DNA from: Chloroflexota bacterium | GTDB taxonomy: Bacteria > Chloroflexota > Anaerolineae > Anaerolineales > Villigracilaceae | Reading direction: 5' to 3' | Assembly: GCA_016235425.1 (NCBI GenBank) | Contig: JACRLC010000013.1 | Coordinates: forward strand, 1 to 49,588 | DNA length: 49,588 bases | Shown: one piece after another, positions 149 to 7,484 of the stretch | How positions within the stretch are numbered: position 1 is the stretch's first letter | Layout of the letters: each line of letters starts with the position of its first letter | Translations under genes and position numbers: made by a program | The notes under the pieces: model-generated | What the model was told of the DNA's origin: nothing | The model's database searches: none | Seen by the model: only the letters and a program-made list of their open reading frames with translations

Positions 149-177
149 TTGACATCCGATTTGAAATGTGACATACT
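149..177 (+). promoter_or_regulatory. sigma-70 type promoter of the left-end small RNA
   Basis: The -35 box TTGACA (149-154), a 17-nt spacer and CATACT (172-177) match the housekeeping consensus well. The predicted start is near 184. The nearest downstream features are the structured RNA and 18-codon ORF rather than a long gene. Confidence 0.7.
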
Positions 178-236
178 TTCGTCACTGCATGGGGGTTCGT
201 CAATTCAAGCCTGCCATCCTAAGAAAGGAGGAGGTG

Positions 237-293
237 ATGTCTAACATGGATAGTAGTAACCAACCCAGCGCTGTGGCATCCCTCCTCAAGTAA
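237..293 (+). CDS. 18-aa small ORF with a very strong Shine-Dalgarno
   Basis: The ORF encodes MSNMDSSNQPSAVASLLK and stops at TAA (291-293). Upstream, AGGAGGTGAT (229-238) matches the complement of the 16S rRNA 3' end over ten bases and runs into the start codon. An earlier AAAGGAGG gives a more usual spacing of about 5 nt. The peptide has no recognised motif. Its 3' codons overlap both a long stem arm and an anti-Shine-Dalgarno-like segment, so translation would change the RNA fold. It could be a leader peptide, a free-standing micropeptide, or simply a ribosome-binding feature of an RNA. Confidence 0.45.
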   Translation: MSNMDSSNQPSAVASLLK

Positions 294-344
294 GAACGCA
301 GGAAGTACACCTGCACCTCCGGGAAGCCACAGCGCGAACCCCAC

Positions 345-370
345 GACTGCCACCTGCAAGGGTGGCAGTC
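345..370 (+). terminator. Terminator-like hairpin before the DUF2085 gene
   Basis: A perfect 10-bp inverted repeat with a 6-nt loop, followed by TGGTTTAAGTTATCTTTT. The T-rich tail is interrupted, so termination may be partial. The tail overlaps the extended -10 promoter of the next gene. Confidence 0.5.
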
Positions 371-387
371 TGGTTTAAGTTATCTTT

Positions 388-396
388 TGCTATAAT
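388..396 (+). promoter_or_regulatory. Extended -10 promoter for a leaderless DUF2085 mRNA
   Basis: TGCTATAAT is a consensus extended -10 element. Its last base is 7 nt upstream of the ATG at 404, so the transcript should begin at or next to the start codon. No Shine-Dalgarno precedes this ATG, which agrees with a leaderless message. Confidence 0.6.
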
Positions 397-403
397 GTGT
401 CTG

Positions 404-1246
404 ATGCAAACACAAATCGCAACATCCCGTTTTACAAGTATCACGCGCTGGTTCGTTCCCATCGCCGCGCTTCTCGTCATGGCCGCATGGTTTTACATTG
501 CACCCGAAGGTGCGCTCGGCAAACTGGACGCCATCGGTTACGCCGTGTGCCATCGCATCGACGCGCGTTCCTTTCACATCGGCGACCGCCAACTCCCCCT
601 CTGTGCGCGTTGCACAGGTGAATTCTTCGCCGCAGGTGTGACGCTCATCTTCATGGGTTTCGTCAGCGGCAAACGAAGCAAACTGCCGTCACGCCGCATC
701 ATCGCGGTGCTTGTCCTTTTCTTCCTCGCCTTTGGCATTGACGGAAGCAATTCCTACCTCTATCTCATGAAGCAAACCGCCGAAGGCGCGTTCGACAAAA
801 TTCCCAACATCTACGTTCCGAACAATACCCTGCGTCTCTTCACTGGAAGCGGGATGGGCATCGCGCTCGCGGCTGTACTTTACCCGGTCATCAACCAGAC
901 CCTGTGGCGCGAACTCGACCATCGCCCCGCGCTTAATTGGAAATCATTTGGCATTCTCGTCACGCTCATCATGGTTCTCAATTTATTAATTCTGACCGAA
1001 CACCCGGTCATCCTCTACCCCGCCGCGTACATCAGCGCGCTGGGTACATTATCCCTGCTCGTGATGGTCTTTGCGATTTTGTGGATTATCATCATGAAGG
1101 CAGATAACACCTACGAGAACATTCGTCAGCTTTGGCTGCCTCTCGCCTCCGGCCTGACCCTCGGCCTGCTCCTCGTCGTCAGCATTGATCTGCTCCGACT
1201 CACCCTCACAGGCACGTGGAGCGGATTTCCGGGAATCGGCGGATAA
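404..1246 (+). CDS. DUF2085 family membrane protein
   Basis: A 280-aa integral membrane protein. After a first membrane span (about residues 10-32) it carries the DUF2085 signature: a CHR motif, a phenylalanine-glycine segment, then LPLC-x-RC-x-G with paired cysteines near residues 50-75. Several further hydrophobic spans follow to the C terminus. The family's function is unknown; the conserved Cys/His residues suggest metal or redox chemistry at the membrane face, which is inference. The frame is open upstream to a GTG at 362, but the ATG at 404 is preferred because the extended -10 element lies directly before it and the extra codons would be upstream of transcription. It is followed by a hairpin and then the DUF4126 gene. 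Confidence 0.8.
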   Translation: MQTQIATSRFTSITRWFVPIAALLVMAAWFYIAPEGALGKLDAIGYAVCHRIDARSFHIGDRQLPLCARCTGEFFAAGVTLIFMGFVSGKRSKLPSRRIIAVLVLFFLAFGIDGSNSYLYLMKQTAEGAFDKIPNIYVPNNTLRLFTGSGMGIALAAVLYPVINQTLWRELDHRPALNWKSFGILVTLIMVLNLLILTEHPVILYPAAYISALGTLSLLVMVFAILWIIIMKADNTYENIRQLWLPLASGLTLGLLLVVSIDLLRLTLTGTWSGFPGIGG

Positions 1247-7368: not shown

Positions 7369-7385
7369 GGTTTGATTGAAAATAT

Positions 7386-7472
7386 GTTCCCTCCGCTGGC
7401 ATTAACCAGATCAGGTATTGCGGGTCGAGCGGTTACGCTCCTCTCAGCCTGTTTAACAGGCTCCCCGTTCAG
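7386..7472 (-). promoter_or_regulatory. TPP riboswitch (THI element)
   Basis: The minus strand shows the conserved aptamer parts in order: ACGGGGAGCC, GGCTGAGAGG, GACCC, ACCTGATCTGGTTAATGCC and CAGCGGAGGGAA. These are the hallmarks of the thiamine pyrophosphate riboswitch. A short GC stem (GAGCGTAACCGCTC) occupies the variable P3 arm. It controls the thiN-thiB-thiP-thiQ-DUF402 operon and is followed by an intrinsic terminator. Confidence 0.97.
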
Positions 7473-7484
7473 TTGTTACGTTGA

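What the first reader, a model, noticed from the sequence alone, without database searches (positions are those of the whole stretch)
149..396. Unclassified structured RNA with a micropeptide and competing anti-Shine-Dalgarno segments
A consensus promoter leads to a 200-nt RNA with an 18-codon ORF, an exceptionally long match to the 16S anti-Shine-Dalgarno (AGGAGGTGAT), a perfect 10-bp long-range stem and a terminator-like hairpin. Two separate segments, CCTCCTC (281-287) and CACCTCC (314-320), can each pair with the ribosome-binding site, and translation of the ORF would disrupt one of them. This is the architecture of a translation-controlled attenuator or a ribosome-binding sRNA. I cannot link it to a known family.
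Basis: partly seen in the sequence, partly recalled or inferred. Interest (0 to 1): 0.72.

Follow-up and report, generated by a model that had tools for sequence, protein, structure and literature searches.

The report
Stand-alone RNA switch with tiny gene
A short stretch of DNA appears to make its own small RNA that carries a 15-codon gene and can fold in two ways, one hiding and one freeing its very strong ribosome-binding site; relatives occur across the phylum Chloroflexota, yet it matches no catalogued RNA family and its job is unknown.

Summary
Window 149-370 is an autonomous unit: consensus promoter, extended Shine-Dalgarno (A, 223-239), 15-18-codon ORF, an anti-SD inside the ORF (B), a 3' arm that takes B back (C), and a covarying terminator-like hairpin. 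A model of it hits 233 of 396 genomes of its class and 88 of 301 of a phylum sample at 36 bits or more (my count). Look-alikes occur in Bdellovibrionota. Rfam 15 has no family for it.
Stem B:C is proven by covariation. A:B reaches 10 bp or more in 22 of 25 deeper loci found without reference to it, with modest covariation. Predicted folding: SD paired to B in nascent RNA (about 0.8), B:C once C is made (over 0.9).
The attenuator reading fails: neighbours vary, and the downstream gene is often convergent pfkA. The second anti-SD (314-320) is a rare insertion. The peptide is probably not the product, since B is read in three frames. Best reading: a stand-alone, co-transcriptionally timed, ribosome-gated RNA switch. 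No expression data; its cellular output is unknown.

The parts
149..177 (+). sigma-70 promoter TTGACA-17-CATACT with extended -10 TGA (169-171); predicted start near 184
   Evidence: 61 of 62 order-level loci score at least 10 of 12 (23 of 1240 shuffles do); TGn in 54 of 61
213..219 (+). 5' anti-SD GCCATCC (GCYAUCC in relatives), weak mask of the SD
   Evidence: conserved in A1; GCCAUCC/GGAGGU pairing; duplex about -8.6 kcal/mol
223..239 (+). A: extended Shine-Dalgarno GAAAGGAGGAGGTGATG, complementary to the 16S 3' tail
   Evidence: -19.6 kcal/mol for the whole of A (-17.9 in the 22 nt before ATG 237; best of 38 genes -18.3); core invariant in A1
246..293 (+). micro-ORF MDSSNQPSAVASLLK* (conserved start ATG 246; alternative in-frame ATG 237); stop TAA 291-293 inside the hairpin loop
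   Evidence: open frame in 64 of 64 order-level and 70 of 70 deeper loci; stop in loop 59 of 59 and 53 of 58
268..277 (+). B, upstream part: 5' arm of the B:C stem GCGCTGTGGC
   Evidence: 8 of 10 pairs (A1) and 7 of 10 (A5) with changes on both sides
278..287 (+). B: anti-SD ATCCCTCCTC (common deeper form GCATCACCTC), pairs with A in nascent RNA
   Evidence: prediction and conservation
298..320 (+). accessory inserted hairpin GCAGG..CCTGC followed by CACCTCC; few relatives
   Evidence: 3 of 63 rows (L001, L009, L011); also L020
326..335 (+). C: 3' arm GCCACAGCGC that takes B back from A
345..370 (+). terminator-like hairpin GACTGCCACC/GGTGGCAGTC with a weak T-tract (371-381)
   Evidence: 10 of 11 pairs with changes on both sides; no strict terminator

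Best explanation
It is a stand-alone small RNA gene with its own strong promoter. The transcript is a three-way switch on its own ribosome-binding site. Step 1: while the RNA is being made, B (inside the ORF) pairs with A (the SD) and keeps ribosomes off (conserved complementarity, predicted, not measured). Step 2: once the 3' arm C emerges, C captures B, and A is left with only a weak 5' mask (GCYAUCC), which a 30S subunit can displace (predicted). Step 3: a ribosome translates the short ORF; because the stop lies in the loop of B:C, the ribosome must melt that stem, so ribosome transit resets the RNA's fold (inferred from geometry). Open frame, start and stop position are conserved, but B is read in three frames, so the act of translation probably counts more than the peptide (inferred). 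Most likely role: an RNA whose fold, and so the exposure of its anti-SD B, reports on or buffers translation initiation and termination. The output in the cell is not shown. I put the switch architecture at about 0.85 and this functional reading at about 0.35.
For: Covariation of B:C (99.5% of cells paired, 53 cells changed on both sides against 9.0 in shuffles; 8 of 10 pairs in A1). A:B: 22 of 25 deeper loci found by the model, not by a pattern, have 10 bp or more; 98.8% of cells paired and covariation score above all 500 shuffles in A5. Mean duplex energies over those 25 loci: A:16S -20.4, A:B -23.2, B:C -23.7. SD paired to B in nascent RNA 0.81 (58 deeper loci) and 0.82 (59 order-level), in full RNA 0.06 and 0.01, B:C 0.91 and 0.97; ORF-body-shuffled control 0.19 and 0.14. 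Open ORF in 64 of 64 and 70 of 70, the other frames far less often. Stop in the B:C loop 59 of 59 and 53 of 58. B in three frames, 41/7/3. Conserved promoter, no fixed neighbour.
Against: No expression or translation data. A:B has only one column with changes on both sides, and on that measure 368 of 500 shuffles do as well. 33 of the 58 deeper loci were found with a pattern that demands 8 bp of A:B, so only the 25 others and the order-level loci test it. The nascent A:B value beat all 8 shuffles in only 41 of 58 deeper loci, and all 20 in 13 of the 25. Even in full-length RNA the SD is predicted mostly paired (unpaired 0.15-0.16; 0.01 for the window itself). A:B is absent in most Bdellovibrionota look-alikes. 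The folding program does not model A:B plus B:C as a pseudoknot.
Confidence: 0.5

Rival explanations
1. The micropeptide is the product, and the switch only times or limits its translation.
For: ORF open in 64 of 64 and 70 of 70 loci with conserved start; M-D/S-S-S N-terminus common; very strong SD.
Against: The conserved C-terminal residues follow from the B RNA, which is read in three frames in different lineages; codons 5-7 vary widely; no hydrophobic or signal segment by reading.
Confidence: 0.27
2. A trans-acting sRNA: the C-rich anti-SD loop (CCCUCCUC or CAUCACCUCC) represses target mRNAs by pairing with their SDs.
For: Stand-alone promoter and terminator-like hairpin; the anti-SD is among the most conserved parts.
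Against: B already has a cis partner (A) to which it is matched beyond the SD core; ORF conservation is unexplained; no targets were sought.
Confidence: 0.2
3. A translation-controlled attenuator (leader-peptide type) of the downstream gene.
For: Leader-ORF-like anatomy with the stop between two pairing arms.
Against: Convergent pfkA downstream in 31 of 66 loci; no fixed neighbour elsewhere; C is not complementary to the terminator's 5' arm by inspection.
Confidence: 0.04
4. A type I toxin mRNA, masked in the nascent state as in hok or aapA3.
For: Co-transcriptional SD masking is the same principle (PMC6733600, abstract and passages read); antisense promoter-like scores of 9 or more occur in 16 of 64 loci against 101 of 640 shuffles, and one such site lies in the window.
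Against: Peptides of 13-21 mostly polar, Ser-rich residues; antisense scores of 10 or more are not clearly raised, 2 of 64 against 12 of 640.
Confidence: 0.06
5. Chance or artefact.
For: The window is a draft assembly and the contig begins 148 bases upstream.
Against: Conservation and covariation across the phylum.
Confidence: 0.01

Closest known systems
Type I toxin mRNAs with metastable SD-masking hairpins (aapA3/IsoA3, hok/Sok)
   Same: An anti-SD masks the SD while the RNA is nascent and a later 3' segment rearranges it (PMC6733600, abstract and passages read)
   Different: There the final full-length form is translationally inert and an antisense RNA exists; here the late arm frees the SD from B, the peptide is not toxin-like and no antisense RNA is known (inconclusive)
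Leader-peptide attenuators and translational attenuators (trp, ermC type; recalled)
   Same: Short ORF whose translation melts one of two exclusive stems; stop between pairing arms
   Different: No regulated downstream gene; ends in its own terminator-like hairpin
Extended SD of rpsU in Flavobacteriales (PMC9976891, start of abstract in the search listing only)
   Same: An unusually extended SD in an mRNA, tied to anti-SD availability
   Different: A normal protein gene; no anti-SD/anti-anti-SD switch known to me
SD-targeting C-rich sRNAs (RsaE/RoxS, 6C; recalled)
   Same: Short RNA with a C-rich, anti-SD-like segment
   Different: Here it lies inside a conserved ORF and has a cis SD partner
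Chloroflexi-1 RNA (RF01698; table row of PMC2864571 seen as a passage)
   Same: Listed for Chloroflexus aggregans
   Different: No Rfam match at gathering score on the element in the loci scanned, including one from a genome I take for C. aggregans

Membership tests
Transcription or translation attenuator with leader peptide | Regulated gene immediately downstream on the same strand, conserved with the leader | tested here: not met
   convergent pfkA in 31 of 66; no fixed gene elsewhere
Transcription or translation attenuator with leader peptide | Short ORF overlapping one of two exclusive stems | tested here: met
   (open frame and pairing; translation itself not measured)
Type I toxin-antitoxin mRNA | Hydrophobic small toxin of about 20-60 residues (size recalled) | tested here: not met
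   Peptides of 13-21 mostly polar residues by reading
Type I toxin-antitoxin mRNA | Antisense RNA gene overlapping the mRNA | tested here: inconclusive
   antisense scores of 10 or more in 2 of 64 loci against 12 of 640 shuffles, 9 or more in 16 of 64 against 101 of 640
Type I toxin-antitoxin mRNA | SD masked in nascent RNA | tested here: met
   by prediction only
Any Rfam 15 family | Covariance-model score at or above gathering | tested here: not met
   (window, 5, 20 and 10 loci); best sub-threshold match on an element rnk_pseudo in L149, 36.4 against 55 bits
SD-targeting C-rich sRNA | Base-pairing with target mRNA SDs in trans | not tested
   No target search was made
Riboswitch | Ligand-binding aptamer controlling a gene | not testable with these tools
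   No fixed downstream gene

The most novel reading that the evidence does not exclude
An ancient, stand-alone ribosome-gated RNA machine: a regulatory RNA with no regulated neighbour that offers the ribosome a near-ideal SD, carries an imitation of the 16S anti-SD (B) to compete for it and a third strand (C) to arbitrate, so that its fold reads out free 30S subunits or the rate of termination at a micro-ORF (early AGU serine codons, UAG/UAA stop). Its core (extended SD, micro-ORF, stop in a hairpin loop, terminator) would be shared by Chloroflexota and Bdellovibrionota.
Probability: 0.22. Interest if true: 0.9.

Novelty: new variant of a known kind. Interest (0 to 1): 0.74.

Why it matters
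A phylum-wide structured RNA that is not in Rfam, covaries strongly and is short enough to probe in full is uncommon. It sets a cis anti-SD against 16S rRNA and against a third strand, with mean duplex energies within about 3 kcal/mol of each other, so it is a natural test system for co-transcriptional folding, SD competition and ribosome-driven refolding. If it does report on ribosome status, it would show that bacteria use a free-standing RNA for that. If the micropeptide is the product instead, it adds a conserved peptide gene that annotation is likely to miss.

Tried and rejected
Rejected: cis-attenuator (gene order); type I toxin-antitoxin (peptide character; inconclusive on antisense); known Rfam family; plasmid or phage element (blastn of 184-375: no match in 72,556 plasmid and 50,697 phage records; the 3 viral contigs do not read as elements); missing 6S RNA (a 6S RNA lies in the same locus as one element, L250).

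False positives: L322 scored 35.6 bits without an SD, so I use 36 bits as floor; L152 (23.8 bits with R1) has no element. Of the 21 weak-hit loci re-read, two have an SD-like run at the hit that needed a look: L299, which I read as the end of a protein gene, and L341, a different small ORF. In one search I printed the wrong stretch for L300 and L302; one search reads them at the hit. One search used a wrong frame and was replaced. Dropped before counts: L020 (no SD half), L023 (repeat of L022), L073 (no match), L324 (no ORF). A5 holds 43 of the 58 deeper Chloroflexota loci; most of those left out have irregular hairpins or B in another frame, which favours A:B. Five loci that one search failed to parse were read by a second rule but left out (59 of 64). 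L148 has a 43-codon ORF and was miscounted as a one-codon ORF in the 'other classes' stops.

Full report
WHAT IS THERE. The window's first 400 bases hold a small transcription unit: promoter TTGACA-17-TGA-CATACT (149-177; 10 of 12), a leader with GCCATCC (213-219), the extended SD GAAAGGAGGAGGTGATG (223-239), an ORF (ATG 237 or, as conserved, ATG 246; TAA 291-293), stem 268-277/326-335 and a hairpin 345-370. The fold is far more stable than shuffles (z -4.63). Rfam 15 gives nothing convincing here.

HOMOLOGUES. blastn of 140-400 over 101 genomes gave 81 with some match at E <= 1, many of them short. I took 66 loci with a recognisable element (L001, L008-L072; L073 gave none). Most genomes show one match; genome G060 also has a partial copy lacking the SD (L020). 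Model R1, built from 63 loci, matched 233 of 396 genomes of the class at E <= 0.01 and 58 of 301 of a phylum sample. Model R2, built from 64 deeper sequences, matched 136 of 301 of the phylum sample at E <= 0.05. With a floor of 36 bits I count 88 of 301, 56 of them outside the class; some of these were in R2's training set. Of the 20 weak R1 hits fetched, 19 lie outside the class: 18 of those show the element by eye and one (L152) does not; the twentieth (L144, same class) shows it. L148 departs by a 43-codon ORF.

HOST. L124 and L128, from genomes told as same class as the window, carry elements identical to those in records named Anaerolineales and Anaerolineae. So the window belongs to Chloroflexota, class Anaerolineae.

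OUTSIDE THE PHYLUM. One hit of the pattern scan, L212, is from a Bdellovibrionales MAG. In its phylum 34 of 144 genomes matched at E <= 0.001; of 19 loci fetched, 11 show SD, short ORF and terminator-like hairpin by eye and 8 do not; L212 makes 12. L212 was in R2's training set, so its 50.6 bits are partly by construction. Most of these 12 lack A:B; 6 of 12 have GAGGTG or GAGGCG in the last 8 codons. Common descent is possible but not shown. Controls: 28 other genomes reached by handle, best 32.0 bits; 3 more, from a Desulfatitalea, a Planctomycetota and a Microbacterium record, best 31.6 bits; Actinomycetota 0 of 119 at E <= 2e-5; Bacillota 3 of 119 at 31-34 bits. None of the control loci read shows the element. 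Other phyla were not sampled widely.

PAIRING. B:C: in A1, 8 of 10 pairs have changes on both sides and the terminator hairpin 10 of 11; in A5 (43 deeper sequences) 7 of 10, 99.5% of cells paired, 53 cells changed on both sides against 9.0 in shuffles and 3-7 in slid controls. A:B: 98.8% paired, covariation score 0.140 against 0.116 (0 of 500 shuffles), but only one pair with changes on both sides (6 sequences A-U to G-C), a measure that 368 of 500 shuffles match. A is also held by the 16S tail, so little change is expected. Bias: 33 of the 58 deeper loci came from a pattern that demands 8 bp of A:B. In the 25 found by model R1, 22 have A:B of 10 bp or more; on the 21 of them in A5, 98.1% of cells pair against 96.3% in shuffles (0 of 500). 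The match runs past the SD core in lineage-specific letters (13-15 bp in L120, L124, L104, L127), and two order-level loci re-match A and B (L061, L072). The window pairs GAGGAGG with CCTCCTC (about -22 kcal/mol with a bulge).

BALANCE AND TIMING. Mean duplex energies are -20.4 (A:16S), -23.2 (A:B) and -23.7 (B:C) in the 25 unbiased loci and -21.0, -22.8, -23.1 in 57 deeper loci; A:16S and A:B do not correlate (0.02). Partition-function folding with 30 nt upstream gives SD paired to B with mean probability 0.81 (58 deeper) and 0.82 (59 order-level) when the RNA stops before C, and 0.06 and 0.01 when C is present, with B:C at 0.91 and 0.97. Shuffling the ORF body drops the first to 0.19 and 0.14; the observed value exceeded all 8 shuffles in 41 of 58 and 53 of 59. 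In the 25 loci: 0.84 nascent, 0.05 full, 0.15 shuffled, above all 20 shuffles in 13 of 25. Against a simple 'open' state: the SD stays mostly paired even then (unpaired 0.15-0.16, window 0.01), presumably with GCYAUCC, a weak duplex (about -8.6 kcal/mol).

TRANSLATION. 64 of 64 order-level and 70 of 70 deeper loci have an open frame at the right distance from the SD, while the other two frames are open in 37 and 7 of 64 and in 3 and 0 of 70 (the frame is chosen, so the contrast, not the 100%, is the evidence). Lengths in those sets are 13-21 codons apart from one of 9. The stop lies in the B:C loop in 59 of 59 and 53 of 58. B is read in three frames, 41, 7 and 3 loci, so the peptide's C-terminus looks like a by-product. 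Two oddities: AGT supplies 124 of 170 (order-level) and 82 of 117 (deeper) serine codons at codons 2-8, against 7.7-9.1% of serine codons in genes; and UGA stops are rare (6 of 64, 2 of 58, 0 of 12; 3 of 19 in other classes) against 83 of 163 neighbour genes and 12 of 38 window genes. Shared ancestry makes these counts non-independent.

CONTEXT. The order-level arrangement is a DUF4153 gene (divergent, 28 of 66), element, pfkA (convergent, 31 of 66), DUF2085 gene (same strand, 20 of 66) (many loci are too short to show all). In the window DUF2085 follows the element directly. Elsewhere the neighbours mostly differ, though a LysM-like ORF upstream recurs in L155 and L156 and one downstream ORF in L167 and L172 (my reading). 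Promoter and spacing are conserved (61 of 62; SD 39-76 nt after the -10).

MECHANISM. Shown: a conserved autonomous unit, stem B:C, an open ORF, long A:16S and A:B complementarity. Predicted: nascent closure by A:B and release by C. Inferred: ribosome-driven resetting, and a role in sensing or buffering translation. The nearest working analogue is co-transcriptional SD masking in aapA3 mRNA, with hok as a cousin (PMC6733600, abstract and passages read); there the end state is closed, here B is given up. Searches for Chloroflexi or Chloroflexota with small or noncoding RNA, anti-SD, RNA motif, uORF and structured-RNA terms, and for Bdellovibrio small RNA with leader peptide, listed no description of it that I could see (listings only, save passages of PMC2864571); most subscription journals are not held, so this is weak evidence of absence.

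Noticed in passing
window 7370-7477 (-): TPP riboswitch (69.9 bits) ahead of a minus-strand run that reads as thiamin-related genes (pyrophosphokinase-like ORF, solute-binding protein, permease, ATPase; names by reading only).
   Followed up: no
window 391-404: TATAAT at 391-396 lies 7 nt before the ATG (404) of the DUF2085 gene, so that gene may be transcribed leaderless from its own promoter.
   Followed up: no
L020 (G060:C212) against L070 (G060:C192): One genome carries a second, partial copy of the element without the SD half.
   Followed up: partly
elements across the phylum: Serine codons near the ORF start are nearly all AGT/AGC and stops avoid UGA; unexplained, either an RNA motif (UAGUAGU) or a tRNA and release-factor preference.
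   Followed up: partly
L317-L334 and L212 (Bdellovibrionota): Half of the look-alike ORFs have a second SD-like GAGGTG/GAGGCG in their last 8 codons (6 of 12).
   Followed up: partly
L155 (G570): The element sits about 300 nt from the 3' end of a convergent 23S rRNA gene.
   Followed up: no
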